From Scytonema tolypothrichoides VB-61278 (GTDB lineage Bacteria; Cyanobacteriota; Cyanobacteriia; Cyanobacteriales; Nostocaceae): a stretch of 64,000 bases of DNA. The translations under genes and the position numbers were made by a program. Positions 9,787 to 48,399 of the stretch are shown in pieces (position 1 is the first letter of the stretch; each line of letters begins with the position of its first letter). The notes beneath the pieces were generated by a model. The model searched no databases. It saw only the letters and a program-made list of their open reading frames with translations, and was not told where the DNA came from. Location: NCBI RefSeq assembly GCF_000828085.3, contig NZ_JXCA02000001.1:62001-126000 (forward strand). Reading direction: 5' to 3'.

Positions 9787-9799
9787 TCTACCAGTCGCG

Positions 9800-9838
9800 A
9801 GTCCAAAGTCATAGAGTTTTAACTCTTGACTTTGGACT
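9800..9838. terminator. Bidirectional hairpin between moaA and rpsD
   Basis: AGTCCAAAGTCA and TGACTTTGGACT form a 12-bp perfect stem around a loop that itself pairs (AGAGTT/AACTCT). It lies in the 79-bp gap between two convergent genes, as expected for a shared terminator. There is no long T-run on either side, so the call rests on the stem and its location. Confidence 0.6.
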
Positions 9839-9865
9839 GTTGACTTTGGACTGTTGAGTGTTGAC

Positions 9866-10474
9866 TTAAGCTTGACGTGAGTAGTATTCCACCACAAGCA
9901 GTTCGTTAATTTGTAGCGCCACCCACTCGCGTTCAATAACGCCGTTGACTTTGCCAAGCAACTTGTTTTTGTCAAACTCCAGATGGTTAGGTAAGTTTGC
10001 CAAACCAGGGTATTGCAAGTTAGCTTCCACCAACTTCCGTGATGCTTCCCGGTTTCTGACGGCAATTTCTTCTCCGGGACGGCATTGGTAACTGGCAATA
10101 TTGACAACGCGACCGTTAACTGTAACATGACCGTGATTCACCAGTTGGCGAGCCGCCGGAATAGTGGGAGCCATACCCATGCGGAAAACAGTATTATCCA
10201 AGCGCATTTCTAGCAATTGCAGCAGCACTTGTCCGGTAGAACCGGTAACGCGTCTCGCTTTGCGTACGTAGCGCAGCAATTGTGTTTCTGTCACACCGTA
10301 GTTAAAGCGGAGTTTTTGCTTTTCCTCTAATCGGATGGCATATTCAGAACGTTTTTTGCGGTTCTGACCATGCTGACCTGGCGGATAAGCGCGTCTAGCG
10401 CTTTTACGAGTTAATCCTGGTAAGTCGCCTAAGCGACGTATAACCCTAAGACGTGGTCCTCTGTATCGGGACAT
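9866..10474 (-). CDS. rpsD: 30S ribosomal protein S4
   Basis: A 202-residue ribosomal protein S4. It starts [20 protein letters not shown] and contains the S4 RNA-binding domain ([35 protein letters not shown]). S4 is a primary binder of 16S rRNA and nucleates assembly of the 30S body. The reading frame extends 15 codons further upstream, but I chose the ATG at 10474 because family members begin at MSRYRGPR. As usual in cyanobacteria the gene stands alone, outside the large ribosomal operon. The N terminus lacks the zinc-binding cysteines of C+ type S4 proteins. Confidence 0.97.
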
Positions 10475-31149: not shown

Positions 31150-31416
31150 TCAGCCTATTTTCTCCAATAGTGCTTCATTAATAACTGTTTGGTAGCCGAT
31201 GCCTCGTTTTTCTGCCTCTTCCTTTGCCCAGGCTATGATTTTAGGATGAAATCTGATGGAAATCGGCTCATACTTTTCCTCTTCATCCTTAGCTGGTCGT
31301 CCGCGCTTCCTGAGTGTAATCCCAAACTGATCCGCGATCGCATCTCTGAATTTTTGGTTTTCTTCTGGTGTAACTTGTCTTGCTCTTTCAAAAGGAAACT
31401 CAGATTCCTGATTCAT
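31150..31416 (-). CDS. brnA: BrnA-family antitoxin
   Basis: An 88-residue antitoxin of the BrnA family. The N-terminal half binds the toxin, and a ribbon-helix-helix-type C terminus follows (ISIRFHPKIIAWAKEEAEKR, then GYQTVINEALLEKI). It should neutralise BrnT and, with it, repress the shared promoter. I chose ATG 31416, which overlaps the end of brnT by 17 bases. The frame continues upstream to 31452, but that start would sit deeper inside brnT. The order toxin then antitoxin is normal for this family. Confidence 0.88.
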   Translation of the reverse strand: MNQESEFPFERARQVTPEENQKFRDAIADQFGITLRKRGRPAKDEEEKYEPISIRFHPKIIAWAKEEAEKRGIGYQTVINEALLEKIG

Positions 31417-31675
31417 ATTGTTGACACTCCCTTTTTGTTGCTTTTCTTGCACTAATTATCCTTATTCGCTCACCTCGCATGGTAAAAACAACCACAACAA
31501 TTGAGCCATCTTCCGCTTCACCAATTGCCCATTCCCTTTCTTCTCCTTGAGAATGACTAGAGTTCTCCGTAAATAGAAGATAGGGATCGGCAAAAACTGT
31601 TATAGCTTCCTCAAATTGAATACCATGTTTCAAAAAATTTGAGGAAGCTTTATTCTCGTCCCATTCAAAACGCAT
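31400..31675 (-). CDS. brnT: BrnT-family ribonuclease toxin
   Basis: A 91-residue BrnT toxin (RelE/ParE-like fold, ribosome-independent RNase in Brucella). The start MRFEWDENKASSNFLKHGI is diagnostic (F-x-W-D-x-x-K-x-x-x-N-x-x-K-H). FEEAITVFADP, REWAIGEAEDGSIVVVVFT and IRIISARKATKRE follow, the last containing the conserved basic motif. It forms a type II toxin-antitoxin pair with the overlapping brnA. It lies between an accessory gene pair and NDH-2, in a repeat-rich stretch typical of such modules. Confidence 0.9.
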   Translation of the reverse strand: MRFEWDENKASSNFLKHGIQFEEAITVFADPYLLFTENSSHSQGEEREWAIGEAEDGSIVVVVFTMRGERIRIISARKATKRECQQYESGI

Positions 31676-34040: not shown

Positions 34041-34646
34041 ATGTCACACTATCAAGGTAAATTAGATACCAAGAATCCGAAAGTGACTCATGGTAACTTT
34101 TTGACAGTGTTTCAACACAAACTTTTGCAAAAAAGTCTACAGGAAGATTTACCGGAGTCATACCGCCAGCGTATCGAGATTATGTTGCTTGTAGATGAGG
34201 GGAAATCCCAAACCGAAATTTGTCGAACTTTAGGGTGTTCTCCAGCAACAGCAAGGCATTGGACGCATATAGCGCGTACAGGTATGGCGCACCAATGGCA
34301 GGATTGTCCAATTGGTCGTCCAATGGCTGTTAATGACGAATATTTGCAGCGTTTGCAGCAATTAGTAAACAATAGTCCTCGTGATTACGGCTATTCTTTT
34401 CAACGTTGGACAGCAAACTGGCTGAGAAAACATTTGGCAAAAGAATTTGGAGTTGAGGTAAGCGATCGCCATATCCTTCGCTTACTCAAACAGATGGGGT
34501 TATCTACTAAATCAAAACCGAAAAATGCTGATAAAGACACAAATAAGAGTGACTTGGCTAAGAGTTCAAAAATCTTAATTCGTGACCTAAATTCGGCTAA
34601 TCCGCCGGATTGCACTGAATTATTGCCTCTTAATCTCACAATGTAG
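34041..34646 (+). CDS. Helix-turn-helix protein, IS630-type DNA-binding fold, first gene of exporter locus
   Basis: A 201-residue DNA-binding protein. Residues about 40-75 form a helix-turn-helix (RIEIMLLVDEGKSQTEICRT, LGCSPATARHW). A second winged or homeodomain-like helical region follows (WTANWLRKHLAKEFGVEVSD, RHILRLLKQMGLSTK). This is the architecture of the N-terminal half of IS630/Tc1-type transposases, but the catalytic DDE domain is missing and the protein ends in a polar tail. It lies 21 bp before the ABC exporter gene in the same direction. I infer it is a domesticated regulator of this locus. A truncated transposase is the alternative. Confidence 0.7.
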   Translation: MSHYQGKLDTKNPKVTHGNFLTVFQHKLLQKSLQEDLPESYRQRIEIMLLVDEGKSQTEICRTLGCSPATARHWTHIARTGMAHQWQDCPIGRPMAVNDEYLQRLQQLVNNSPRDYGYSFQRWTANWLRKHLAKEFGVEVSDRHILRLLKQMGLSTKSKPKNADKDTNKSDLAKSSKILIRDLNSANPPDCTELLPLNLTM

Positions 34647-34667
34647 GAGGGACTGATTCAGATATCT

Positions 34668-37409
34668 ATGGTGCACAATCCAACACAAGCGCACTTGCTT
34701 GTCTTAAAACAGTTGAACAATGGTCTAGGATATTCTCTTTCTGAAGAAGAGTTTCAGCGTTGCCTTCACGCGGCTAAAATTCTGAATCCAAAAGTCGGAA
34801 AATTCTGGCAAAAAAACCACGTTGAACCCGGCATCTACATTGTTGTTGCTGGGAAGGTAAGGTTGCTAAACGACGCAGAAGAATTGATAGCCTCCTTAGA
34901 GGTTGGTGCGTCGTTTGGCGAATTTACTTTATTTCCCGAGTCTGATTTTCAGCCTTACAAAGCTAGGGCTGCGTTGAATTTACAGGTGTGTTTTATTCCA
35001 AAAGAGGTGCTGCTACCACTTATGGCTAAACACCCACAAATTCGGGAACACTTGCAGAATCAAGCGCAAACACGCAACTCCCGACTTTTGGGGAGAAATG
35101 ACTCTCAAACAACATTTGTCAATGTAGGCAAACCATATCCTAAGATAGATATTTCCTCAACATCAGCAGTACAACCAAAGCAAGGGAAAAGGATAAGCAA
35201 AGCTTACTTCCCAAATCCTAAGCAACGAGTTGGGCATTTTTGGCAACGGATGATTCGACGCTATCCGTTTTTTGCCCAACAAAGTGCATCTGACTGCGGT
35301 GCAGCTTGTTTGGTGATGATATCTCGTTATTGGGGGAAACGCTTCAGTATCAACCGCGTCCGGGATATTGCTAATGTTGACCGCAGTGGCGCGTCGTTGC
35401 GTGGGTTATCAGCAGCTGCAGAAAGTCTTGGGTTTGGTACTCGACCAGTAAAAGCGAGTCTTGACCAGTTGGCGAAGCAGAAATTACCTGCCATTGTCCA
35501 CTGGGAAGGGAAGCACTACATCGTTATCTATGAAATTAACAAAAGAAATGTCATAGTTGCAGACCCCGCCATTGGTCAACGCACCCTCAGCCATGCAGAA
35601 TTTAAAGCAAAATGGACTGGCTACACACTGCTTCTAGAACCCACAGCCTCACTAAAGGATGCCAAAGAAACAACAACTCCCTTTTGGCAATTCTTTGAGT
35701 TGATTAAGCCCCACTCTGTTGTCATGCTAGAAGTGCTTGTCGCTTCTATATTTATCCAGATATTTGGACTGGTTACTCCTTTATTCACCCAGTTAATTTT
35801 AGATCGAGTGGTGGTGCAGCGTTCGGAACTCACGTTAACGGCGGTGGGGTTGGGGTTGCTGATTTTTAGCCTGTTTCGCGTCGCGATCATGGGTTTGCGA
35901 CAATATCTCTTATTTCACACGGCAAATAAGCTGGATGTGGCATTAATTGTGGGGTTTATTCGCCACACTTTGCGACTTCCTTTAAGTTTCTTTGAATCCC
36001 GTTATGTTGGAGATATTATCTCTCGCGTACAAGAAAACCGCAAAATCCAACGCTTCCTCTCTGGTGAGGCTTTGTCTATCCTGCTGGACTTCCTCACGGT
36101 TTTTATCTATGTAGGATTGATGTTTTGGTATAGCTGGAAAATGGCATTGCTGGCGTTGGTGATTATACCGCCTTTTTTCTTGCTGGCGTTGATTGCGACA
36201 CCTTTTTTACAAAAGATTTCCAGAGAAATCTTTCATGCTGTGACCAATGAAAGTAGTTACCTGATTGAAATCATGACTGGTGTGCGGACGGTAAAATCCA
36301 CGGCGGTAGAACAAACAGTGCGTTGGCATTGGGAGGAGTTATTACATAAGGAGGTAAAAACTAACTTCTCCGGCCAAGTTATCAGCAATGGTCTGCAAAT
36401 ATTTAGCAATACTATTCAAGCCGTAGCAACTACCCTCTTGCTATGGTTTGGAGCATCTTTGGTGATTCAAAATCAATTAACAATTGGGCAATTGGTAGCA
36501 TTTAATATGCTGGTAGGTCAGATTATTTCGCCCTTCCAACGATTAACCGTGTTGTGGAATCAATTGCAGGAAGTGGTGATTGCAACAGAACGTATTAATG
36601 ATGTGTTAGATGCAGAACCAGAAGAAGATTTTCAGCATCAAACACGGCAATTTTTACCAGACATTCATGGACACATCTGCTTTAAAAATGTCACCTTTCG
36701 TTATCACAAAGAAAGCGACACTAATATTCTACAAAATCTAAACTTTGAAATACAACCAGGGCAAATGGTGGCGCTGGTGGGACGTAGTGGTTCAGGAAAA
36801 ACGACAATTTCTAAGTTAGTTTTAGGGTTGTACCCTCCAACAGATGGTCAGATATTGATTGATGGACTAGATATTACGAGTATTTCCCTGCGTTCTTTAC
36901 GTTCGTCTGTTGGAGTTGTGGATCAAGACACTTTTTTGTTTGGCAGCACGATTCGAGAAAATATCAGTTTAGGACATCCAGGGGCAACTTTAGAAGAGGT
37001 TATTGAAGCGGCAAATTTAGCAGGTGCTGATGAGTTTATTAAAAAGTTGCCTATGGGTTATGAAACCCAAATTGGTGAAGGTGGGGGTTTGTTGTCTGGT
37101 GGACAACGTCAGCGGATTGCGATCGCCAGAGCATTATTAGGTAATCCCCGCTTATTAATTTTTGACGAGGCGACTTCCCATCTAGATACAGAGTCAGAAC
37201 GGATTATTCAAAGGAACTTGAACACAATCCTCAAAGGACGAACCGCTTTAGTCATTGCTCATCGCCTCTCGACAATACGAAATGCAGATTTGATTTTAGT
37301 TTTAGATAAGGGTGTGTTGATTGAGAGTGGAACTCACGAAGCGTTAATGGCAAACCGAGAACATTATTTCTATCTCAATCAACAACAGCAGCTGAACATG
37401 GCGGCGTGA
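34668..37409 (+). CDS. Peptidase-containing ABC exporter (C39-ABC) with N-terminal cyclic-nucleotide-type domain
   Basis: A 913-residue PCAT-type exporter that removes double-glycine leaders and exports the core peptide. Residues about 30-135 resemble a Crp-like cNMP-binding beta-roll (VEPGIYIVVAGKVRLL, VGASFGEFTLFPES). The C39 protease domain (about 198-325) has catalytic Cys210 (QQSASDCGAACLVM), His283 (WEGKHYIVI) and Asp299 (VADPA). Six membrane segments lie between about 345 and 625. The ATPase has Walker A GRSGSGKTT, signature LSGGQRQRIAIA and Walker B LLIFDEAT. With a GG-leader protease, an HlyD partner and two GG-leader peptides nearby, the substrate is probably those peptides. The extra cNMP-type domain is seen in cyanobacterial HlyB-like exporters and may gate activity. 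Confidence 0.92.
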   Translation: MVHNPTQAHLLVLKQLNNGLGYSLSEEEFQRCLHAAKILNPKVGKFWQKNHVEPGIYIVVAGKVRLLNDAEELIASLEVGASFGEFTLFPESDFQPYKARAALNLQVCFIPKEVLLPLMAKHPQIREHLQNQAQTRNSRLLGRNDSQTTFVNVGKPYPKIDISSTSAVQPKQGKRISKAYFPNPKQRVGHFWQRMIRRYPFFAQQSASDCGAACLVMISRYWGKRFSINRVRDIANVDRSGASLRGLSAAAESLGFGTRPVKASLDQLAKQKLPAIVHWEGKHYIVIYEINKRNVIVADPAIGQRTLSHAEFKAKWTGYTLLLEPTASLKDAKETTTPFWQFFELIKPHSVVMLEVLVASIFIQIFGLVTPLFTQLILDRVVVQRSELTLTAVGLGLLIFSLFRVAIMGLRQYLLFHTANKLDVALIVGFIRHTLRLPLSFFESRYVGDIISRVQENRKIQRFLSGEALSILLDFLTVFIYVGLMFWYSWKMALLALVIIPPFFLLALIATPFLQKISREIFHAVTNESSYLIEIMTGVRTVKSTAVEQTVRWHWEELLHKEVKTNFSGQVISNGLQIFSNTIQAVATTLLLWFGASLVIQNQLTIGQLVAFNMLVGQIISPFQRLTVLWNQLQEVVIATERINDVLDAEPEEDFQHQTRQFLPDIHGHICFKNVTFRYHKESDTNILQNLNFEIQPGQMVALVGRSGSGKTTISKLVLGLYPPTDGQILIDGLDITSISLRSLRSSVGVVDQDTFLFGSTIRENISLGHPGATLEEVIEAANLAGADEFIKKLPMGYETQIGEGGGLLSGGQRQRIAIARALLGNPRLLIFDEATSHLDTESERIIQRNLNTILKGRTALVIAHRLSTIRNADLILVLDKGVLIESGTHEALMANREHYFYLNQQQQLNMAA

Positions 37410-37512
37410 GAGGACAAGAAAGAGCAGTTCTTAAGGAGGGGGAGAAAATTTTTCATCTCCTTCATCTCCCTATTTCCTGCTGCCAAAATCCAAAACTTTG
37501 TAAGGATAAATC

Positions 37513-39048
37513 ATGACAAATACGTTAAATGGAAAGGTTCACACTCACATCCAAGAGAGTAAAAACTATCAGGAAATTCTCAACTCTCAAATCTCAGTTA
37601 AGCCAAGTGATAAGCCAAAGGATGATTGGTCTGAGGTCACTCAAGATTTACTTGATAGCTTACCTCACGTTTGGACGAAAGGATTACTATATTTTCTGTT
37701 GAGTTTTTCGGCTATTGTTTTGCCTTGGGCGATGTTGTTTAAAGTTGATGAAACAGGCACTGCGAGAGGAAGACTTGAACCGAAGGGTAAGACAGTTAAC
37801 TTAGATACTCTTGTTACCGGAACTGTTGCCCAAATTCCGGTAAAAGAAGGTGAATTAGTCAAACCTGGGGAACCTGTGTTGATATTGGATTCGGAATTAG
37901 TTAAAACCGAATTACATCAGGTAAAGGAGAAATTGGAAGGGCAGTTAAATCGGCTTTCGCAGTTGAATGTTTTGAAAAAACAGTTAGTCGTAGCTTTGAC
38001 AACTCAGCAACAACAAAGTCAAGCACAAGAGTTAGAAAAACAGGCTCAAATTGAGCAAGCGCAGCAGAATTTTAGTGAACTCAAAAATTCTTATGAACTA
38101 CAAAAAGAAGAAAAACTGACACAAGTCAACCAGGCAAGACAAACTGTTGAATCTAGTCAAACAGCAAGTAAGTTTGTAGAGAGTGGTTTAGCCAGTGCCC
38201 AGCAGGAGGTGAAACGCTATAGACAGTTAAGTCAAGAAGGGATCGTTGCAGAAGTTAATGTTGTACAAAAGCAAGACATGGCAAACGAAAGGCAAAAGTC
38301 GTTTGCACAAAGTCAATCAGAGATTTCGCAAGCGAAACTACGCTTAGCAGAACAACAAAGTCATTATCAGCAGACTATTCGCAAAGCCAAAGCTGAGATT
38401 GAACAGGCTTACTTGCGCCTGAAGGAACAGCAAAGAAGTTATCAAACTTTGACTCATTCTGGGAAGCTAGCTGTCTTAAAAAGTGAAGAACAATTGAAGA
38501 ATCTCGAAACAGAAATGACTACCCTCAAGTCAGAGATTGCTCAAAGTAAAAGTCAAATTCAAAGTTTACAGCTACAGTTAGGGCAAAGAGTCTTAAAATC
38601 ACCTGTCGCTGGTAGAGTGTTTCAGTTACCAATACAAAGGGCTGGGGCTGTCGTGCAGTCAGGAACAATGATTGCAGAAATTGCCCCTGAAGGTGCGCCT
38701 TTAATTATTCGGGCACAGATAACGACAGCCGAGAGTGGTTCATTACAGAAAAAAATGCCAGTTAAGCTAAAGTTTGATGCTTATCCATTCCAGGATTATG
38801 GAGTTGTAGAAGGAGAATTAGTGGAGATTTCTCCTACTACAACAGAGGTGGTAACAGCTAATGGAAAAGTGGCAGCTTATAACTTAGAAATTGCCCTGAA
38901 ACAGAATTGTATTCCCAAGGCAGATAAATGTATTTCCTTGCGTCCTGGAGATACAGCGACAGCTGAGGTGATTGTACGACAACGTCGGATTATTGATTTT
39001 CTGCTCGATCCGTTTCAGCAGTTGCAGAAAGGCAATTTGAAATTATAG
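37513..39048 (+). CDS. HlyD-family membrane fusion protein
   Basis: A 511-residue periplasmic adaptor that couples the ABC exporter to the outer membrane. One membrane span (about residues 58-78, LLYFLLSFSAIVLPWAMLF) is followed by a lipoyl half-motif (LVTGTVAQIPVKEGELVKPG). A long coiled-coil hairpin runs from about 120 to 350, and the second lipoyl half and beta-barrel follow (LKSPVAGRVFQLPIQRAGA). The C terminus (RPGDTATAEVIVRQRRIIDF, LLDPF) matches HlyD/type I secretion adaptors. The start has AAGGATAAATC. It is 103 bp downstream of the exporter gene and clearly in the same operon. Confidence 0.92.
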   Translation: MTNTLNGKVHTHIQESKNYQEILNSQISVKPSDKPKDDWSEVTQDLLDSLPHVWTKGLLYFLLSFSAIVLPWAMLFKVDETGTARGRLEPKGKTVNLDTLVTGTVAQIPVKEGELVKPGEPVLILDSELVKTELHQVKEKLEGQLNRLSQLNVLKKQLVVALTTQQQQSQAQELEKQAQIEQAQQNFSELKNSYELQKEEKLTQVNQARQTVESSQTASKFVESGLASAQQEVKRYRQLSQEGIVAEVNVVQKQDMANERQKSFAQSQSEISQAKLRLAEQQSHYQQTIRKAKAEIEQAYLRLKEQQRSYQTLTHSGKLAVLKSEEQLKNLETEMTTLKSEIAQSKSQIQSLQLQLGQRVLKSPVAGRVFQLPIQRAGAVVQSGTMIAEIAPEGAPLIIRAQITTAESGSLQKKMPVKLKFDAYPFQDYGVVEGELVEISPTTTEVVTANGKVAAYNLEIALKQNCIPKADKCISLRPGDTATAEVIVRQRRIIDFLLDPFQQLQKGNLKL

Positions 39049-39089
39049 AAAGTGCTAGGTTTAAATTTATTGACTTAATTGGAATAAAT

Positions 39090-39830
39090 ATGATGTTAAA
39101 TACTGTTACTATTACCAACGAAGATGTTCTTCAACAAGTCAAGCTATCTTGTAAAATTCCGGAAATTATCCAAGAGATTGTAACCCGTAAAATTGTTGCA
39201 GTTGCTGCTGAGAAGATTGGCATTGAGGTAGAAGATGAAGTACTCCAGAAAACAGCAGATACTTTCCGATTAATAAACAACCTTGGAAGTGCTGAAGAGA
39301 CATGGCTATGGCTCCAAAAACATCACCTTTCCATTGAAGACTTTGAACAAATCGCATACACCAGCAGCATTTCTGAAGAGTTGGTCAAACATCTGTTTGC
39401 AGATAAAATTGAACCCTATTTCTTTGAAAACCAACTAGACTATATTGGCGCAGTCATGTACGAAGTTGTCTTAGATGATGAAGATTTGGCAATAGAGCTT
39501 TATTACACTATAAAAGAAGGTGAAATGAGCTTTTATGATGTTGCTCACACATATGTCCAGGACACAGAGTTACGCCGAAAATGCGGATATCGGGGGACAG
39601 TGTATCGTAAAGATTTAAAGCCAGAAATTTCTGCCGCTGTCTTTGCTGCTAAGCCGCCTCAGCTTCTCAAGCCAATTGTGACGTCTTCAGGAATCAATTT
39701 AATTTTTGTGGAAGAAATCGTTCAACCACAATTGAATGATAAACTACGCAATAGAATAACTACAAATTTCTTCTCAGAGTGGCTAAAACAACAAATTGAC
39801 CAGATGAAAATTATTCCGGACTTATCATAA
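39090..39830 (+). CDS. SurA/PpiC-like peptidyl-prolyl isomerase family protein of exporter locus
   Basis: A 246-residue protein with an N-terminal helical SurA_N-like region (about 1-110) and a parvulin-like domain (about 118-215: EVVLDDEDLAIELYYTIKEG, FYDVAHTYVQD, GYRGTVYRKDLKPEISAAVF, KPIVTSSGINLIFVEEI). There is no signal peptide, so it should act in the cytoplasm. Proteins like this commonly follow HlyD/ABC genes in cyanobacterial peptide-export clusters. I infer a chaperone or holdase role for the exported precursor. Catalytic prolyl isomerase activity is not assured. It begins 41 bp after the hlyD stop. Confidence 0.82.
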   Translation: MMLNTVTITNEDVLQQVKLSCKIPEIIQEIVTRKIVAVAAEKIGIEVEDEVLQKTADTFRLINNLGSAEETWLWLQKHHLSIEDFEQIAYTSSISEELVKHLFADKIEPYFFENQLDYIGAVMYEVVLDDEDLAIELYYTIKEGEMSFYDVAHTYVQDTELRRKCGYRGTVYRKDLKPEISAAVFAAKPPQLLKPIVTSSGINLIFVEEIVQPQLNDKLRNRITTNFFSEWLKQQIDQMKIIPDLS

Positions 39831-40137
39831 GATCATCTAGTTCTTTTGTGTCCAGATTAATAACAGAGTAGACCTCTTGCAAAAGTGAGATTTTACGAGG
39901 TTCTGTTAAGAGTTAAGCGTTCAGAATTAAGAGTTAAGCGTTCAAAGTTCTCTACAACTGCCACGAAGTCTAGTGTTTCCTTTAAGAAAACACCTGCATC
40001 TTATTTGAGTAAGATGCAGGATAAGACTGGCAATAAATTCAGAAGTAAAGCGAGTGAATGTCATTCTTTATAAAGAAGATTATCACTCAAGCTTTATTTA
40101 TCAAATTTATAGAAACGATTAGTGATATAACTTTTTA
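39831..40137. repeat. Intergenic stretch with TTGCAAAAGT-family repeat (39871-39914)
   Basis: The repeat GACCTCTTGCAAAAGTGAGA then TTTTACGAGGTTCTGTTAAG matches 25203-25246 in reverse. After it come two AGTTAAGCGTTC words. A hairpin follows at about 39986-40020 (CACCTGCATCTTA / TAAGATGCAGG), suitable as a terminator for the exporter operon. No gene is supported. Confidence 0.65.
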
Positions 40138-40344
40138 TTACCACCAACGGCGATATCCATAGTCATAGTTATTTACAGCTTTCCCGTCGCCAATATTAAC
40201 GTTATTGCCGCCGTTTCCGTTGCCAAAACTAATGCTATTGCCGTTGTTTCCGTCTCCACCTTTTGTTGCATCAAGCTCAGTATTTGATAGCTCATTGATA
40301 TAGCTGTCAGAGGTTGGCAGTTGAGCAATTGTAATCTTAGCCAT
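40138..40344 (-). CDS. Putative RiPP/bacteriocin precursor A, double-glycine leader, core ends RRWW
   Basis: A 68-residue peptide. The leader (about 1-30) has MAKITIAQLPTSDSYINELS then NTELDATKGG, with the acidic ELS-x-x-ELD helix and Gly-Gly cleavage site used by C39 proteases. The core (about 31-68) is Asn/Gly-rich (DGNNGNSISFGNGNGGNN and so on) and ends DYGYRRWW. A Shine-Dalgarno AGGAG lies upstream. It is convergent with the exporter operon, divergent from precursor B and close to the ThiF-like gene. I infer it is cleaved and exported by the C39-ABC/HlyD pair and probably modified by the E1-like enzyme. Confidence 0.8.
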   Translation of the reverse strand: MAKITIAQLPTSDSYINELSNTELDATKGGDGNNGNSISFGNGNGGNNVNIGDGKAVNNYDYGYRRWW

Positions 40345-41305
40345 TTGAAATGTACTCCTGGTTCAAGTTCTTTGTTTTAGGATTGGACTTTGTCTTGTCT
40401 CTTCCTGTTAACTATCTTCTGCTATTTACTCTAGGTATTCAAGGTTTTCATGACTAGTAAATAGACAAAAAGGATGCAGTTATATGTCGTCTATACATCA
40501 TAAATCTTGCTTGCTTGAGCGTTTTTTTTATAAACATCTCTGTTGTCGAATAAAATCATTATTCTTTGACAACATAATGAAAACATTTATGTCTGTTTTA
40601 CTAGATAAAAGTTGTCCGGATTTTTAGTTGCTTGGCTGTATTTATAACAGATTTAAAATATTGACTTTTTATGGAAAGTCTGAGAAACAGAAACAGTATA
40701 GTTTTTTCCACGATTTGATTCTCATACCGTTTTCATATGAAGATGCATAGAAAGAACCCCATCGCCGTTAACTGCCCTCCCCGATGTTTATTGATAATGG
40801 CTTTTGAATGGGTAAATGCCTGACTTCTCCCTTGTGGGGTGCTTAGATCTTGCACCTGAAAACATGAATGTTATCTCAGCACTAAGTATTAAGAGCAAAG
40901 TACTTAATTTTCGATAAATAGCCGCATCAAAAAATGTAGCTTGATTGCGGTTATTGCTGCTTTCTCGTGGTTTATACGGCTAGGTGCAAGATATCACTTA
41001 AGTAATAACTGCACTAGTTATGTCAGTTCTATCGGAAATTGGCAGTTAATTTTATTAGTATATTTACGTATAAGTATAAAGCTTTCTTACTGAAACTCTT
41101 CTAGTTTGGCGTTTTCCGACTATTTAGTCCATGCCTAATCAAGTTAGTGCGAATTGAATTTGACAACAAATGTAACTTTTATGTCTTAAAGTATACTTGA
41201 AACTACTTGAATGTCATAAATTTCTTATTTAAGCTGGTAATCAGCAATAAAACATTTCTGTTTTGTTGAAAAACACAAACAAATCTTACTTAGAGGAAAA
41301 CTGAA
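40345..41305. other. Long divergent region between the two precursor genes
   Basis: No further precursor-like frame was found by eye on either strand. The region is AT-rich apart from a GC-richer segment at about 40755-40860. It contains inverted arms ATCTTGCACCT (40847-40857) and AGGTGCAAGAT (40982-40992). Promoters for both precursors should be here. Confidence 0.5.
40847..40992. repeat. Foldback element with ATCTTGCACCT ends
   Basis: Perfect 11-bp inverted ends, ATCTTGCACCT and AGGTGCAAGAT, 146 bp apart in total, with partial extension outward (TTAG.../...ATCACTTAAG). There is no frame inside. It could be a MITE or the ends of a deleted insertion sequence. Confidence 0.5.
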
Positions 41306-41548
41306 GTGGCTCACATTACTGTTGGAAATCTCAAATCTGCTAACGCTGAATTGTTTTTTGAAAATCCTGAAAGTTTTATCACCGAATTAGGTGCTGACGA
41401 AACTGGTAAGATTCAAGGTGGATTAGGATTACTAAATGGTTTTCTAAATGGTAATACTACAGTAGTTAATGCGCCGATTGCAATAGGTGGTAGCAACAAT
41501 GATTCTGATGGCATTGACAATAAAGTAACATATCCTACGAGATGGTAA
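41306..41548 (+). CDS. Putative RiPP/bacteriocin precursor B, double-glycine leader, core ends PTRW
   Basis: An 80-residue peptide starting at GTG 41306 behind TAGAGGAAAA. The leader (about 1-39) begins MAHITVGNLKSANAELFF and ends ITELGADETGKIQGG, giving a Gly-Gly site. The core (about 40-80) starts LGLLNGFLNGNTTVVNAPIA and ends KVTYPTRW. It shares with precursor A the MA(K/H)IT start, the GG site, an Asn/Gly-rich core and a basic residue before C-terminal Trp, while the rest differs. The ThiF-like gene is 521 bp downstream in the same direction. It is probably a second substrate of the same export system. Confidence 0.78.
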   Translation: MAHITVGNLKSANAELFFENPESFITELGADETGKIQGGLGLLNGFLNGNTTVVNAPIAIGGSNNDSDGIDNKVTYPTRW

Positions 41549-42069
41549 GAACCTGAGACGTTGCTCAACAGGTAACGCTTGACAACATAGATACAAGCTG
41601 AATCTAAGGCAATTGCAATTTCACTCACTTAACTTACTTGCTTGTAGTCTGTCTAATTATTAAAAATTTGGACTGTAAATGCTGTATTCACTCAGATACG
41701 AATACTTGCTCAGTTCTTAAACATCAATTCAGTAATCAGACTGGTAACAAGAAGATAGAAATTTGGCATTCCCTTTTCAAATATCTACTTGCTGAAGTCT
41801 GTAAACCTAGCATTACTAAACTGATGTTCTAGACAACACAAGCTAAGTTTTCACTCAAGTTGGGAGTCAGATTCATCAGTCTCTTTACTCCCACTTATTA
41901 CTTGAGAATCAATTGTCACCATAACTGTCAGAAACTAAAGTTGCCAGATAATAGCCAAAGTCAATTAAGAATTGACTTTGGCTATTAAATATGACATGAG
42001 TTTCTCGGGAATGACTCTCTAATCAATCTTTGAATCAAGTCGTAAGTGTATTGAAAATTTTGGCTAACT
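41549..42069. other. Region between precursor B and thiF-like gene
   Basis: No convincing gene. An imperfect hairpin lies at about 41846-41905 (CTCAAGTTGGGAGT / ACTCCCAC..TTACTTGAG), and a perfect one at 41951-41985. Very short extra precursors cannot be fully excluded, but I saw no GG-leader-like frame. Confidence 0.5.
41951..41985. terminator. Strong hairpin before the thiF-like gene
   Basis: ATAGCCAAAGTCAATT, loop AAG, AATTGACTTTGGCTAT: a 16-bp perfect stem but without a T-run. It may end the precursor B transcript, or attenuate read-through so that precursor is made in excess of enzyme. Confidence 0.65.
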
Positions 42070-43086
42070 ATGAATATATTGAATAAATTCCAAGATGGAA
42101 TTACCTTTAAGCCTAGTATATATTTATTCTTTCCGTCAAAACAGAAAACTATACTAACCAATGGTCAACAGTCTTTCGTACTATCTAATATCCCTCAAGA
42201 GGTAGTGCAAGCATTAAAGCAAATAGTCGTAGGAACACAGCTTAATGCATTAGCATCTTTACTCCCAGGCGATAGACTTGAAAAAGTGATTTCACTGTTG
42301 GATTCTAAGGGTGTAGTAAGACCTTTCTATGAAAACGAATTCAAGGAAACACTTTTCGAGAAGCAAGTCGAGTTCTTTTCAGATTTCGTTGACGATCCCA
42401 ATGCTGCACAACAAAAGCTTTCAAAACAGTCTGTCTGTATTATCGGTTGTGGTGGAGGTGGAAATATTGCAGCCCAACATCTGGTAGCTGCTGGAATTAA
42501 AAACTTTATATTGGTCGATGATGACACTGTAAATCTAACAAACTTTAACCGTCAGTTTTGTTTTAGTCAGGCTGACGTCGGTACGCCGAAGGTTGAAGCA
42601 CTGCGTAACTATATTTTAGCGAGAAACCCTGATACAAAAGTCCATACTCGTAGAATAAGAATTCATTCAATAGAAGATTTATATAAAGGTTTAGAGGACT
42701 TAGAAAAGCCAGATTTTATTCTCTGTTGTGCTGACACACCACCAATTTTGATTGAGTCATGGATAGCACAGTATTGCATACAGGAAAATGTACCATGTAT
42801 GTTCTCAGGTGTGGGAGTTTATCATGGCATAGTAGGTCCATTATTGACAGAAAAGAGCCATATGGAAAAGTTTATTCAGCACAATCAAGAACTGGAGAAG
42901 CGGCAAAATGAAAGTTCTTTAAAAGTTGTATCGTCATCAATATCATATCTCAATACTTTGATTGGAACTCTGATGATTTCAGATGTGATTAAGTTTCTTT
43001 CAAGTATTAGTCAGCCACTCTCTCTGAATGCGACTTTACAATACAATGCTGATAAGGGTAACTTGGTCAAGATTGCTGAGTGGTAG
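42070..43086 (+). CDS. ThiF/E1-like adenylating enzyme with N-terminal PqqD-like region
   Basis: A 338-residue E1-superfamily protein. The N-terminal 95 residues have the strand-helix-winged-helix pattern of PqqD-like leader-binding (RRE) modules (YLFFPSKQKTILTNGQQSFVLS, then LASLLPG...LLDSKGVVRPF). The Rossmann ATP site is VCIIGCGGGGNIAAQHLVAA. Then come the Asp and Arg of VDDDTVNLTNFNRQ, GTPKVEALRNYI, and DFILCCADTPP. No CxxC zinc pair is obvious. The protein itself ends KIAEW. E1-like enzymes activate peptide C termini or side chains (MccB on microcin C7, PaaA on pantocin A, the C proteins of azoline RiPPs). By position it probably adenylates the Trp-ended precursors. No YcaO partner is present. 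Confidence 0.82.
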   Translation: MNILNKFQDGITFKPSIYLFFPSKQKTILTNGQQSFVLSNIPQEVVQALKQIVVGTQLNALASLLPGDRLEKVISLLDSKGVVRPFYENEFKETLFEKQVEFFSDFVDDPNAAQQKLSKQSVCIIGCGGGGNIAAQHLVAAGIKNFILVDDDTVNLTNFNRQFCFSQADVGTPKVEALRNYILARNPDTKVHTRRIRIHSIEDLYKGLEDLEKPDFILCCADTPPILIESWIAQYCIQENVPCMFSGVGVYHGIVGPLLTEKSHMEKFIQHNQELEKRQNESSLKVVSSSISYLNTLIGTLMISDVIKFLSSISQPLSLNATLQYNADKGNLVKIAEW

Positions 43087-43267
43087 AAACTATCAGTGAT
43101 GTTGCAAAAGTCGATTTTTGCCAATCAAGTTTCTTTCATTCGTAACGGGTGGTGATACGTTTTTTAGGGTGCGATAGCGAAGCGCTACTGCCTTCGGCAG
43201 ATCGCTCCTCACAATCGCACTCCTTTTCAACTTCATCCCCTCATTCTTCCTCTGCTGACCACAACTA

Positions 43268-43487: not shown

Positions 43488-44435
43488 CTAATTTCTACCC
43501 AAAGCCTGCTCGATGGTAGAAATTTTCACCGCCAAGTTGATGATATCCTGTCCAGTACTAGGTCTTTTCACTTCAGCATTATTAAGAGCCACAATATAAG
43601 GAGCATCATTAATTACGCCGATAATCGCCCCACCGGAAGAACCGCCAGCAGTGGCGCAATCATGTAATAAAAAACCAGCTTCTTCCTTCACGATGCTGCA
43701 TTTTTCCTCATAACTTGCCGTCCATCCTGGACCTGCAGTGAAATATTTTTGATACTTTTCGTTAGGAAAATCACCAGAATAACCCACGAAAAAGAAAGCT
43801 TTCTGCTTGCGAACAAGCGTAGTAGAAGGTATAGATTGCAGTCCCAAATGACCGTATTTACGACCTAGAGGTTGATTAATTTTCATAATTGCCCAGTCAT
43901 TAGGATTCAGACTGCTGCCTTTCTTGAAATCTGTACCGTAAACAACTTGCTCAACTTGCGCTATGTCTTGGTAATTCTTATCAATGACATTTGGCATAAA
44001 CTCGATTTTCGTGCTGAGTTTGCCAGTTTCGGGGTCGATAACGCAGTGAGCATTCGTCAAAACCAAATTATCGCTAATTAATGTTCCTGTGCAATGATAA
44101 TCTCTGGCATCGGTTGTAGTTCCCTGGACTCGACCAATTGCCGACCAAGGATATTTTCGGCTCAACATCGGGATACGATTATCTATACCACTAGGAATTC
44201 CTCTAGAGTCGCCTTCGTCAGGTTTTGCAGACCGTCCCAAACTCGGAGGTATAAAAGGTTTTGCATCACCTAGCAGCTTAAGTTGACCTGCTTGTTGGGA
44301 ACTGATGAATTTGGGTGTGATGCTTTGCTGTGGTTTTACTTGTGCTTGTGCTTGTACTGATGTCCAATCACGACTAGTAAGAGTTGTGACACCAAGAAGT
44401 CCAGCCAACAAGAGGACGAAAGATTTTTTCTTCAT
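43488..44435 (-). CDS. Secreted trypsin-like serine protease
   Basis: A 315-residue S1-family protease. A Sec signal peptide is clear (MKKKSFVLLLAGLLGVTTL, cleavage perhaps near VQAQA). The catalytic triad is visible: His in LVLTNAHCV, Asp in NPNDWAIMKI, Ser in TAGGSSGGAI. Cys pairs in YHCTGTLIS/AHCV and CSIV/HDCA suggest disulfides. It should be periplasmic or extracellular. ATG 44435 is chosen because TTAGGAGT precedes it, although the frame runs eight codons further. It lies next to the peptide locus but is convergent and separated by a MITE-like element, so a functional link is only speculative. Confidence 0.87.
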   Translation of the reverse strand: MKKKSFVLLLAGLLGVTTLTSRDWTSVQAQAQVKPQQSITPKFISSQQAGQLKLLGDAKPFIPPSLGRSAKPDEGDSRGIPSGIDNRIPMLSRKYPWSAIGRVQGTTTDARDYHCTGTLISDNLVLTNAHCVIDPETGKLSTKIEFMPNVIDKNYQDIAQVEQVVYGTDFKKGSSLNPNDWAIMKINQPLGRKYGHLGLQSIPSTTLVRKQKAFFFVGYSGDFPNEKYQKYFTAGPGWTASYEEKCSIVKEEAGFLLHDCATAGGSSGGAIIGVINDAPYIVALNNAEVKRPSTGQDIINLAVKISTIEQALGRN

Positions 44436-44466
44436 GATTATTAACACTCCTAAATTCAATATTTGG

Positions 44467-44712: not shown

Positions 44713-47700
44713 TCATCTCCACTCGCCTTGCAAGGTAAAAGCCGCCCAATAGTAAGGGTTTCGCCAATTTTCTTGCCTCCACAGTTTGAGTTGTGCTTCA
44801 CGCAGGGCAATTGTGGGAGATGTCTTTTGCTGCAACATTGCTGTGTAAAATAGGGGCATTAATTCCGATGTTGCGGTGTCGTTAACTTGCCACAAAGACA
44901 CCACAGCACGTTTTGCCCCTGCATACATCAATCCTCTTGTCAAGCCCACTAATCCTTCACCTTGGACATCTTTACCTAAACCCGTTTCGCAAGCACTCAG
45001 CACAACCAAATCTGCACCCAAGTCCAAGTTAAAAATATCACCCAAGCGTAGGATACTTGGAATATAAGATTTACCTTGTTTGTCTATTTGAGAAAGTATG
45101 ATTCCCGATTTTTCTGGGTTGATAGGGTCAACAAAACCGTGGGTTGCAAAGAGTATGAATCGATATTGTTTGAGTTTTTGACTAGTTGCAAAGTTGTAGT
45201 TGGCATCAAAATCAAAAGCGTACAAACTTTCTGAAGGCGAGACAAGTTTTAAGATTTGTTCAGCTTCTGTGCGTGTACCCGGTAGCCGTCCTAATCTGTC
45301 AAGTTTAAGATTTCTCGCGGTTTGTTTGAGGCTGGACTGTTCGAGATTGAGTTCAGGACCGAGGGAAGGATCTTTACCTGTGAATCGCTTGTCATCAAGC
45401 GCAAATACAGGATCAGCTAGGACGGCTAGGGTTTTGGGTGCGGGTTGGCGTTTGTTTAAGTCGTTTCGGTGGATGGCTATGGCTGTGACAGAAGGTAGAT
45501 TGACAATCTCGTGGTTGACTAACAGAGGCTGATAATTAGATTTGCCAGCCTGTGGGGACTTTTCAAGGTTGGTTGGCGAGTTCTGATTTGGTTGTGATAA
45601 TGCTGCAAAGGGAATTTCTTGCAATCCACCATCCGCGACAATAACCAAGCGCTTTTTCCCCAACTTCTGTGCAACGGGTGCAAAGATAAGCTTGCTGAGT
45701 TCAGTTGCAGCTTGGGTGATTTCTTGAAAATCCTTAACTTTTTGTTCTGTGGGTAACTTCTGGCAGTTTAAACCTAGTTTTTGACATTTTTTCAATAGTT
45801 CCTTGAATGTGGCTGCTGATTTTTCTATCGCTTCGCGTCCAGGGAGTTCGTAGGTGTCAACAGAATTGGGAGTCACCGCCCAAAGATAGCTGCGTTCTTT
45901 ACCCAAGGAATACTGCAACAGCAGGGTGTCTTTATCGAGTTGTTGCTGAATTTGGGGTAACTTTAGGGGTTCGGGATACTTCAGTGCAGCATATTTAGGG
46001 TTAGTCGTGCGGATTTTTGCCTGAAGTTCACGGTATTGGTTAAGAAGATTTGCAATTTCTGTATTCAGGGTTGCGATTTGTTGTTCGCTGACCTTGATCT
46101 TAGATTCAAACAGTGATATTAACCGTTTCTGTCGCGCTTCCAAAAGAAACTGCAAGCGGCGTTCTTCTGCCAAAAGTTTTGGATCAGCGCCTTTGCGGAT
46201 ATTAGCATGAGCTTCGGTTAACAGTTCTATCAAACCCCTAGCGCGGGAGCGTTCGCTGATGTGCAGCGCTTCTGCATCGTATCCTTTTGATGGGTCTTTT
46301 TTGTGCAGTTGCATCAACAGGTCAATGTAGAATTGGTAATAATCTTGAACTGTGGCAAAGTAGGAACTACGCAAGTCAAGACTCGTGACTTTGCCACGTA
46401 TCCCTTCAATAATTTCAGTTGTTTGTTTAATGTAGGTGAGAGCCGCTGGTAAATTACCTCTATCGCGTTCATTCACAGCAATTTGGTAAAGTGTTGCTGC
46501 TTCCTCTGCTTTGTTGCCTAAAGTTTTTCTTATGGCGAGTTCTTGATTGTGCGTGTCAATCGCTGTTTGATATTGTTTTAAGGAGTTGTATGTTTTGCCG
46601 ATATTTCTGAGGACAGCAGCTTCTGTATACTTATTTCCTAATTGTTGAACCAAAGATTTTGACTGCTGGGATATGGACAGCGCTTGTTGATAATCTCCCT
46701 TTTCCTGGTATATTCTCCCTTGTAAACCTAAGGCAGAACTTTCTAACGGTTTGTTCTTCTGTTGACGCACCATAGAAAGATACTTGTTGGCATTATTTAG
46801 CGCTTTGTCATACTCCTTTAATGACAGGTAAGTTCTTCCCAACTTACCGAATAGAAGTGATTGTTGAAATAGACCTCCGATCTGTTGACTCAGAGACAGC
46901 GCTTTGTTGTAATATTCTATAGCCTGAGGATAATCTTTCATTTCATAATGAGCATCACCAATGGAGTTCAGACTGAAAACTTCATTTTTACGATCGCCTA
47001 ATTGCCGATATAAATCCAGCGCCTGTTGACAAGTGTTAATACTCTGCTGATAGTCGCCTAATGACCTGTAGAGCTTCGCCATATTATCAAGGGTGTCGGC
47101 TTGTCCACCGCGTATGTTTAGTTGACGCTGAATAGTGAGTGCTTGATTGAAGGTATCCAGTGCTTTCTGATACTCACCTTGTGATGCTAAGACATCTGCT
47201 TTCTCGTTGAGTATTTCAGCTTCTTCTACACGGTTGTTAATAGCACGGGCAACGGTAAGCCCTTCCTCTAAGGCATCCAGTGCTTTCCCATACTCCCCAA
47301 TGAACACCTGGTAGAAACTAGATATTTGCTTCAGAGCCAAGATTTCTCCGCTAGGATATCCTACTTTTTTATACAGGAATCGCGCTTGTTGGATGTAATC
47401 AAGCGCTTTCTGATTTTCGCCCAATGACCGGTAAGTAGATGCAAAACTCATCAGAATACTTGCTTGAGATAGTCGATCTTGAGGAACTTGTTGTAATAAT
47501 CTCTGTGCTTGTTGTAGCTGTTCGAGCTCTTTCTGATTCTCACCTAATATACCGTAAACTCTTCCCTTAGACACAAGGACTCCAGCCTGTCCAGAGACAT
47601 CGTTAATTCGGCGGTAGATTTCTAGAGCCTGATCATAGGAGTCAAGAGCATTCTTATTCTCACCCCAGTTCCAATATGCTAAACCCATAGAATTATAAGT

Positions 47701-48399
47701 ACTGGCTTGGCTTGGAGGATCATTTTGTTGAAGAGCTAAAGCTTGTTTGTATGCTTGAATTGCCTCTTGGCGCTTATCAAACTGTTCCGCATAAATGTTA
47801 GCGATAGACTTCAAAGTTTTAGCCTCATCCTTGGGTCGTTTTTCAGAGCGAAACATGGAAAGCGCAAGGTTAAAATTTTCCAAAGCTTTTTGGTTATCAT
47901 CCATGTTCGAGTATGTTACACCCAGACCCCAGAGCATGTCAGCTTCTTGAGATGTCAACTTCTGTTCACGACTAATAGATAGTGCTAGTTTTTGATATTC
48001 CAACGCTTTGTTGTTTTCGACCAAGTTCAAGTAGACACTACCAATATTAAGTAGCAGGACTACTTCCAGTCTTTTATCGGGTAATTGTCGCGCGAATTTT
48101 AATGCTGCTTCATATTTCTGAATTGCTTGTTGCTTTGATTCTAGAGTTCCCTGATCAAGCAGTTTCTGCCCTTCATCAAACAGTTTAAGTCCTTCCTGTG
48201 CCAGTTTTTTTTGCTCTGGGGTGAAGGTATTGTATGGATCTGTGTTTGACTGCTGTGCTATCTGCAAACTTGCATTTCTTGGTGTTGCTACTACTGAGTC
48301 AGATAATAAGACTGCTGTGAGTAATAATGTTAAACTGTAGCGAGAAAACTTAGAAAATGAGCAGCAAAAAATAGACCGAAGCTTTGCACTCCTGTTCAT
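44713..48399 (-). CDS. Secreted TPR-CHAT protein (caspase-like peptidase)
   Basis: A 1228-residue protein. It has a basic, hydrophobic N terminus (YSLTLLLTAVLLSDSVVAT), likely a signal peptide. About 15-16 tetratricopeptide repeats follow (about 60-700). A charged helical linker (about 770-850) and a CHAT domain (about 900-1228) complete it. The CHAT catalytic dyad is intact: His1087 in LFATHGFVD and Cys1137 in VLSACETGLG. CHAT proteins are separase/caspase-like cysteine peptidases activated through attached TPRs. In other bacteria some act in defence (for example TPR-CHAT of type III-E CRISPR). This class is abundant in filamentous cyanobacteria, and the target is unknown. No CRISPR or defence gene is adjacent. 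Confidence 0.9.
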   Translation of the reverse strand: MNRSAKLRSIFCCSFSKFSRYSLTLLLTAVLLSDSVVATPRNASLQIAQQSNTDPYNTFTPEQKKLAQEGLKLFDEGQKLLDQGTLESKQQAIQKYEAALKFARQLPDKRLEVVLLLNIGSVYLNLVENNKALEYQKLALSISREQKLTSQEADMLWGLGVTYSNMDDNQKALENFNLALSMFRSEKRPKDEAKTLKSIANIYAEQFDKRQEAIQAYKQALALQQNDPPSQASTYNSMGLAYWNWGENKNALDSYDQALEIYRRINDVSGQAGVLVSKGRVYGILGENQKELEQLQQAQRLLQQVPQDRLSQASILMSFASTYRSLGENQKALDYIQQARFLYKKVGYPSGEILALKQISSFYQVFIGEYGKALDALEEGLTVARAINNRVEEAEILNEKADVLASQGEYQKALDTFNQALTIQRQLNIRGGQADTLDNMAKLYRSLGDYQQSINTCQQALDLYRQLGDRKNEVFSLNSIGDAHYEMKDYPQAIEYYNKALSLSQQIGGLFQQSLLFGKLGRTYLSLKEYDKALNNANKYLSMVRQQKNKPLESSALGLQGRIYQEKGDYQQALSISQQSKSLVQQLGNKYTEAAVLRNIGKTYNSLKQYQTAIDTHNQELAIRKTLGNKAEEAATLYQIAVNERDRGNLPAALTYIKQTTEIIEGIRGKVTSLDLRSSYFATVQDYYQFYIDLLMQLHKKDPSKGYDAEALHISERSRARGLIELLTEAHANIRKGADPKLLAEERRLQFLLEARQKRLISLFESKIKVSEQQIATLNTEIANLLNQYRELQAKIRTTNPKYAALKYPEPLKLPQIQQQLDKDTLLLQYSLGKERSYLWAVTPNSVDTYELPGREAIEKSAATFKELLKKCQKLGLNCQKLPTEQKVKDFQEITQAATELSKLIFAPVAQKLGKKRLVIVADGGLQEIPFAALSQPNQNSPTNLEKSPQAGKSNYQPLLVNHEIVNLPSVTAIAIHRNDLNKRQPAPKTLAVLADPVFALDDKRFTGKDPSLGPELNLEQSSLKQTARNLKLDRLGRLPGTRTEAEQILKLVSPSESLYAFDFDANYNFATSQKLKQYRFILFATHGFVDPINPEKSGIILSQIDKQGKSYIPSILRLGDIFNLDLGADLVVLSACETGLGKDVQGEGLVGLTRGLMYAGAKRAVVSLWQVNDTATSELMPLFYTAMLQQKTSPTIALREAQLKLWRQENWRNPYYWAAFTLQGEWR

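What the first reader, a model, noticed from the sequence alone, without database searches (positions are those of the whole stretch)
34041..43086. Candidate new RiPP system: E1/ThiF enzyme, Trp-ended GG-leader peptides and a cNMP-C39-ABC/HlyD/PPIase exporter
Seen: an HTH gene, a C39-protease ABC exporter with intact Cys-His-Asp, HlyD, a SurA/PpiC-like protein, two short Gly-Gly-leader peptides and a ThiF-like enzyme with a PqqD-like N terminus, all within 9 kb. Known: C39 exporters cleave GG leaders, and E1-like enzymes activate precursor peptides in MccC7, pantocin and azoline pathways. Inference: the ThiF enzyme modifies the two precursors before export. There is no YcaO, LanM, radical SAM or other known partner here, so a C-terminal or side-chain adenylation chemistry would be new in this context.
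Basis: partly seen in the sequence, partly recalled or inferred. Interest (0 to 1): 0.85.

Follow-up and report, generated by a model that had tools for sequence, protein, structure and literature searches.

The report
ThiF-like peptide-modifying module in a cyanobacterium
A filamentous cyanobacterium carries a two-gene cassette, one small precursor peptide plus a microcin-C-type activating enzyme, plugged into a common cyanobacterial peptide exporter; it looks like a rare new variant of a known family of ribosomal peptide natural products, with its chemistry still to be shown.

Summary
In detail: HTH, cNMP-C39-ABC exporter, HlyD, PpiC/SurA-like protein, two Gly-Gly-leader peptides and an RRE-ThiF enzyme lie at 34041-43086. 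The exporter is a common cyanobacterial type (Wang 2011 group I). The enzyme's N terminus models as a RiPP recognition element; its adenylation domain is closest to MccB, ATP-site residues intact. A natural experiment separates the peptides: sister genome G604 has the cassette and the minus-strand peptide but lacks one ~2.5-kb block holding the plus-strand peptide P0003 and thiF; three relatives have that pair without the minus-strand peptide. So ThiF goes with P0003, not with both. The terminal Trp is not conserved (W, C, C, Y). Both leaders match a leader family found beside class V lanthipeptide kinase/HopA1 enzymes in cyanobacteria; ThiF paralogues sit beside kinase/HopA1 in two Brasilonema genomes and beside HopA1 in Chamaesiphon. 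RRE-ThiF RiPPs (MccB, PaaA, GrcB, EnfB, IndF) are an established kind. Most likely ThiF adenylates a carboxylate of P0003, probably C-terminal, and a side chain 4-5 residues upstream closes a ring; the ring is inference. A rare new variant of a known kind.

The parts
34041..34646 (+). HTH protein P0007 (IS630-transposase N-terminal-like HTH), first gene of the exporter cassette
   Evidence: found at the head of the cassette in most other loci with it
34668..37409 (+). P0004: cNMP-binding, C39 peptidase, ABC exporter ('long type')
   Evidence: Pfam domains; Cys210/His283/Asp299, Walker A and ABC signature present
37513..39048 (+). P0005: HlyD membrane fusion protein
   Evidence: TIGR01843 223.5 bits, over cut-off 208.65
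39090..39830 (+). P0006: PpiC/SurA-like parvulin, TIGR04500-related
   Evidence: Rotamase 1.9e-7; TIGR04500 62.9 bits, below cut-off 180
40138..40344 (-). P0002: GG-leader peptide, 68 aa; companion peptide not linked to ThiF
   Evidence: leader profile E 5.6e-5; relatives in L115-L117 without ThiF; no match in L013-L015
41306..41548 (+). P0003: GG-leader precursor, 80 aa (GTG start), the likely ThiF substrate
   Evidence: leader profile E 3.4e-7; orthologues 67-72% identical in L013-L015, each with ThiF
42070..43086 (+). P0001: RRE + ThiF/E1-like adenylyltransferase, MccB-like
   Evidence: PF00899 6e-45; MccB nearest solved structure; RRE fold of residues 1-91
40648..43123 (.). about 2.5-kb block absent as a unit from G604; its recognised genes are P0003 and thiF
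   Evidence: window 40647 and 43124 meet at L115 9926-9929, no N in 9200-10100

Best explanation
The locus is a RiPP export cassette of the common cyanobacterial group I type (HTH, cNMP-C39-ABC, HlyD, PpiC) into which a two-gene module, precursor P0003 plus RRE-ThiF enzyme P0001, has been plugged. P0001 binds the P0003 leader through its N-terminal RRE and uses ATP to adenylate a carboxylate of the core, most likely the C-terminal one. A nearby side chain (Tyr at -5 here; Cys at -4 or -5 in the related systems) then attacks, closing a small C-terminal lactone or thiolactone ring. The C39 exporter cuts after Gly-Gly during secretion. Shown: genes, domains, intact ATP-site residues, predicted RRE fold, purifying selection on ThiF, co-inheritance of P0003 with thiF. 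Inferred: leader binding, adenylation, C-terminal site, ring, export.
For: P0003 and thiF are missing together as one block in G604 and present together in the window and L013-L015. All 7 close ThiF loci have a precursor with the same leader family and the same ABC, HlyD and PpiC. MccB is the best solved match (104 and 121 bits against 63 and 67 for ThiF), with R161, Q162, K174 and D222 aligned to MccB and invariant in 7 aligned sequences; the same Arg/Lys/Asp matter in PaaA and EnfB (passages of PMC12250964). Residues 1-91 model at pLDDT 88.8 and the top Foldseek hits are RRE-bearing proteins. dN/dS 0.18-0.20. No YcaO in G000, G605 and G124, so docking for a YcaO is excluded there. Ten of the last 15 residues are shared between window and L013 (read). 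Tyr or Cys at -4/-5 in 7 of 7 ThiF loci (three lineages; read by eye) against 7 of 36 precursors without ThiF. Characterised RRE-ThiF enzymes act by carboxylate adenylation and attack by a nucleophile (PMC12150305, parts 1-2 of 3 read).
Against: No product, assay or complex model. The -4/-5 pattern was chosen after seeing the sequences and rests on three lineages. The last residue is not conserved (W, C, C, Y); over the last 15 codons dN/dS is 0.64-0.78, much higher than in the leader (0.20-0.35), so the C terminus is not tightly held. The conserved Asp/Lys of the cluster A core could equally form a lactam. The full-length model is poor (pLDDT 56.1). ThiF may need an enzyme encoded elsewhere.
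Confidence: 0.5

Rival explanations
1. Side-chain activation: P0001 adenylates a conserved Asp of the D.DGIDNK segment of P0003 and Lys or another residue closes a lactam or imide, in the manner of PaaA.
For: D.DGIDNK is present in all four cluster A cores; PaaA is among the fold and sequence matches.
Against: Cluster B cores, beside a 71-72% identical enzyme, hold no Asp or Glu, so only the C-terminal carboxylate is available there.
Confidence: 0.2
2. P0001 is a leader-binding scaffold that brings P0003 to dehydratases encoded elsewhere (orphan LxmK-like kinase and HopA1 at G000 C1, about 745 kb); the product is a dehydrated class V-like peptide.
For: Leader of the family found beside kinase/HopA1; orphan pair seen in the same neighbourhood in three Brasilonema genomes; ThiF sits beside kinase/HopA1 in L016/L017 and HopA1 in L018.
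Against: ATP-site residues intact and invariant; HopA1 is present in all 7 genus genomes including 3 without ThiF; HopA1 loci commonly lack ThiF (no ThiF match in 20 of 20 fetched HopA1 stretches).
Confidence: 0.2
3. MccB-like nucleotidylation: P0001 leaves AMP or another nucleotide on the peptide C terminus (Trojan-horse type).
For: MccB is the nearest solved relative.
Against: No C-terminal Asn in the paired precursors seen; the local exporter is a C39-ABC; no CxxC in P0001 where MccB has one.
Confidence: 0.05
4. TOMM/azoline pathway with ThiF as docking protein for a YcaO.
For: RRE plus ThiF fold.
Against: No YcaO in 3 of 5 ThiF-bearing genomes, the window's own included; the window P0003 lacks Cys.
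Confidence: 0.02

Closest known systems
RRE-ThiF (TLAT) RiPPs: MccB, PaaA, GrcB, EnfB, IndF
   Same: N-terminal RRE plus E1-like adenylation domain with matching Arg, Lys and Asp; adjacent precursor; no YcaO needed
   Different: 80-aa precursor with a GG leader of the class V-associated cyanobacterial family and a C39/cNMP exporter; the terms cyanobacteri, C39 and double-glycine have 0 hits in the main text of the review PMC12250964
Cyanobacterial group I bacteriocin clusters (Wang 2011, PMC3140520)
   Same: long-type CAP_ED-C39-ABC, HlyD, SurA
   Different: the word ThiF has 0 occurrences in that paper's main text
Cyanobacterial type-B class V lanthipeptide loci (Liang 2022, PMC9486802)
   Same: leader family (inferred) and, in 10 of 20 fetched kinase/HopA1 loci, the same exporter cassette
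   Different: window cluster lacks LanK/LanY in cis and Cys in the core; has ThiF
Abiotrophia defectiva cluster with ThiF-like enzyme plus lanthipeptide dehydratase (noted in PMC12250964)
   Same: combination of ThiF and a dehydratase, as in the related clusters L016/L017
   Different: not compared here; the section read does not say which class of dehydratase
HetC of Nostoc PCC 7120 (PMC10986499)
   Same: cNMP-C39-ABC architecture
   Different: no GG-leader gene found near hetC, by that paper; role in heterocyst development (passages)

Membership tests
RRE-ThiF (TLAT) RiPP enzymes | N-terminal RRE | tested here: met
   model pLDDT 88.8; ranks 1-10 of the Foldseek list are ThcOx, a heterocyclase (4v1u/4v1t), TbiB1, TigE and TruD, TMq 0.56-0.67, one chain only at E below 0.001, with MINA53/NO66 oxygenases from rank 11 and MccB from rank 19 (that the top names bear RREs is partly recalled); no Pfam PqqD hit
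RRE-ThiF (TLAT) RiPP enzymes | E1 adenylation domain with intact ATP-site Arg, Lys, Asp | tested here: met
   R161, K174, D222 aligned with MccB and invariant in 7 sequences
RRE-ThiF (TLAT) RiPP enzymes | co-encoded precursor peptide and transporter | tested here: met
   7 of 7 close loci
RRE-ThiF (TLAT) RiPP enzymes | ATP-dependent activation of the precursor | not testable with these tools
   needs an assay
Microcin C (MccB type) | precursor ending in Asn | tested here: not met
   P0003 family ends W, C, C, Y; cluster B ends T; Chamaesiphon ends D
Microcin C (MccB type) | 7-residue precursor | tested here: not met
   80 aa with GG leader
Class V lanthipeptide (LanK/LanY) | LxmK-like kinase and HopA1 lyase in the cluster | tested here: not met
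   no such gene among the proteins scanned; the only HopA1 of the genome lies about 0.64 Mb away with a kinase
Class V lanthipeptide (LanK/LanY) | cyanobacterial type-B leader | tested here: inconclusive
   P0003 matches a profile of 27 leaders from kinase/HopA1 loci, E 3.4e-7; that this is Liang's type-B set is inferred from host and gene context, its Figure S6 was not seen
Class V lanthipeptide (LanK/LanY) | Cys plus Ser/Thr in the core | tested here: not met
   no Cys in the window P0003
TOMM/azoline | YcaO cyclodehydratase | tested here: not met
   no match in G000
Group I cyanobacterial bacteriocin exporter | CAP_ED-C39-ABC + HlyD + SurA | tested here: met
   definition from passages of PMC3140520

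The most novel reading that the evidence does not exclude
A cyanobacterial RiPP subclass in which an MccB-like E1 closes a 4-5-residue C-terminal lactone or thiolactone (YPxR[WCY], CSRT, CYTAD) on class V-type GG-leader peptides; in the related clusters the same ring would be combined with LanK/LanY dehydration, giving a thiolactone-lanthipeptide hybrid exported by a C39/cNMP exporter, perhaps as a signal.
Probability: 0.2. Interest if true: 0.75.

Novelty: new variant of a known kind. Interest (0 to 1): 0.5.

Why it matters
It joins two RiPP worlds, E1-type carboxylate activation and the common but little characterised cyanobacterial kinase/HopA1 GG-peptide loci, and offers a small testable enzyme-substrate pair with a built-in control peptide (P0002). 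If the ring exists, it would show how one exporter cassette takes up different modification modules, and might give an autoinducer-like secreted ring from a phototroph.

Tried and rejected
TOMM reading: rejected on YcaO absence. ThiF modifies both peptides: rejected by the presence/absence pattern. Conserved C-terminal Trp: rejected. Spread on viruses or plasmids: no ThiF relative in viral contigs (0 of 197 stretches that matched a pattern); in plasmids 33 records match and none covers 80% of the query; the 20 listed are E. coli at 27.8% identity or thereabouts. Distant matches L019 and L020 (31% and 26%) show no match to P0002-P0007 and were left out of the ThiF counts. Penultimate Arg as a signature: 6 of 7 ThiF loci, 1 of 36 others, absent in Chamaesiphon, so only a hint. 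No further lineage was found for an out-of-sample test of the -4/-5 pattern. The full-length structure model was too poor to use for the active site.

Full report
What is there. The window (Brasilonema lineage, from the nearest named records) holds, on the plus strand unless said, an HTH gene, a cNMP-C39-ABC exporter, HlyD, a PpiC/SurA-like protein, a minus-strand GG peptide (P0002), a plus-strand GG peptide (P0003) and an RRE-ThiF enzyme (P0001). The C39 residues Cys210, His283, Asp299 are present.

The exporter is ordinary. Wang et al. 2011 (PMC3140520, passages) define group I, the most abundant of seven cyanobacterial groups (57 of 145 clusters), with the long-type CAP_ED-C39-ABC, HlyD and SurA. 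A PpiC search of the own genome gave 6 matches; three besides the window's (47-65% identical) were fetched and each has ABC and HlyD beside it; the other two (26-27%) were not followed. One of the three lies beside a LanM (DUF4135 + LANC_like) with its own GG peptides, so one cassette type serves different modification enzymes.

The two peptides are real and belong to a wider leader family. HopA1 (PF17914) occurs in 57 of 195 genomes of the order. I fetched 20 of the listed loci: 20 of 20 have a LxmK-like kinase in the stretch, 10 of 20 have the ABC exporter (one more, L080, only a weak partial match at its end, not counted; three stretches, L065, L072 and L080, are shorter than asked because of contig or chosen ends), and none of 20 has a ThiF match. 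A profile of 27 leaders from these loci picks P0003 and P0002, and no other of 447 window ORFs, at E up to 5. Liang et al. 2022 (PMC9486802; abstract, passages and section 7 read) describe 'type-B' class V LanA peptides, all from cyanobacteria; that the leaders here are the same set is my inference.

ThiF is rare. Close matches, own genome included each time: 2 of 291 genomes of the order; 4 of 217 of the family, plus one 31% match; 1 of 386 of the phylum, plus one 26% match; 1 of 388 of the class. In the family of the Chamaesiphon genome, 1 of 11, that genome itself. The samples overlap. In all, seven distinct loci: cluster A in the window, L013, L014, L015; cluster B (ThiF 71-72% identical) in L016, L017; Chamaesiphon L018 (43%).

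Context of the seven. All seven have a leader-profile hit and ABC, HlyD and PpiC; HTH in six, the L013 stretch beginning inside the ABC gene. L016 adds two pairs of LxmK-like kinase and HopA1 and a luciferase-like oxidoreductase, L017 one such pair before its contig ends, and the oxidoreductase. The two L016 kinases have NF038156 (LxmK) as best NCBIfam match but far below its cut-off: 93.5 and 44.2 of 315 bits. L018 has HopA1 and no kinase match in its 15.4-kb contig. The window cluster has neither; an orphan kinase/HopA1 pair without a recognised precursor lies about 0.64 Mb away, and HopA1 is present in 7 of 7 genus genomes.

Natural experiment. G604, G606 and G607 have orthologous cassettes (PpiC 97, 87, 81% identical) and P0002-type peptides but no ThiF match. 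In G604 the window segment 40648-43123, with P0003 and thiF, is missing while both flanks are contiguous, with no N there; G604 is 89% complete, so it is the contiguous site, not the genome-wide absence, that counts. The contigs of G606 and G607 end soon after the peptides, so their site cannot be checked. L013-L015 have P0003 and thiF but lack about 39870-40366, which holds P0002. Hence P0003 and thiF are one module, P0002 another.

Enzyme. phmmer and profile searches rank MccB first (103.6 and 120.9 bits; ThiF 63.0 and 67.1). R161, Q162, K174, D222 align to MccB residues and are invariant in seven sequences. MccB's CxxC is missing. The full-length model is weak (pLDDT 56.1); its best Foldseek matches are MccB, then PaaA and TcdA, with TM about 0.4. 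Residues 1-91 alone model well (88.8) and the top hits are RRE-bearing RiPP enzymes, though just one chain passes E 0.001 and oxygenases appear lower in the list. dN/dS of ThiF is 0.18-0.20; of the P0003 leader 0.20-0.35; of its last 15 codons 0.64-0.78, on few sites.

Mechanism. Published RRE-ThiF enzymes adenylate a carboxylate that a nucleophile attacks: MccB, PaaA, GrcB (thiolactone), EnfB, IndF (Trp indole) (PMC12250964: abstract, sections 7 and 14 and passages; PMC12150305: parts 1-2 of 3). ThiF proteins of YcaO clusters are docking only, by the latter paper; YcaO has no match in G000, G605 and G124 but is present in G603 and G608. Cluster B cores have no Asp or Glu, leaving the C-terminal carboxylate as the one site common to A and B. 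Tyr or Cys lies at -4/-5 in all seven loci (read by eye), against 7 of 36 distinct precursors found by a text pattern in 23 loci without ThiF; the pattern is post hoc and three lineages deep.

Novelty. Searches for ThiF with 'class V lanthipeptide' and for ThiF with HopA1 and lanthipeptide gave 0 papers in the open library; the listings name no such combination in cyanobacteria in title or abstract start. The review notes one ThiF plus lanthipeptide dehydratase cluster, in Abiotrophia. I rate it a new variant of a known kind.

Noticed in passing
L030 9017-11458 (G000 C1 about 745-747 kb), also L122, L123: Orphan LxmK-like kinase + HopA1 pair with no match to the exporter cassette or type-B precursor in the fetched stretch, in a similar neighbourhood in three Brasilonema genomes
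   Followed up: partly
L118 4436-8915: LanM (DUF4135 + LANC_like) with GG peptides beside a copy of the same exporter cassette in the own genome; one peptide copy contains unread bases
   Followed up: partly
L061, L062, L063: Arrays of 3-6 near-identical leader-family peptides without Cys in the core beside kinase/HopA1: possibly dehydrated, non-lanthionine peptides
   Followed up: no
L016 8766-10801 and 11935-14233: Two kinase/HopA1 pairs in one cluster; the second kinase is shortened and could be a LanX-like protein
   Followed up: no
window 31150-31675 (-): BrnT/BrnA toxin-antitoxin pair
   Followed up: no
window 43488-44459 (-) and 44713-48399 (-): Trypsin-like protease next to a TPR-CHAT protein downstream of thiF; L115 holds a gene of similar length there, with only a short 69% match to the protease region
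   Followed up: no
L018 2746-4899: HlyD fused to a response-regulator receiver domain in the Chamaesiphon cassette
   Followed up: no
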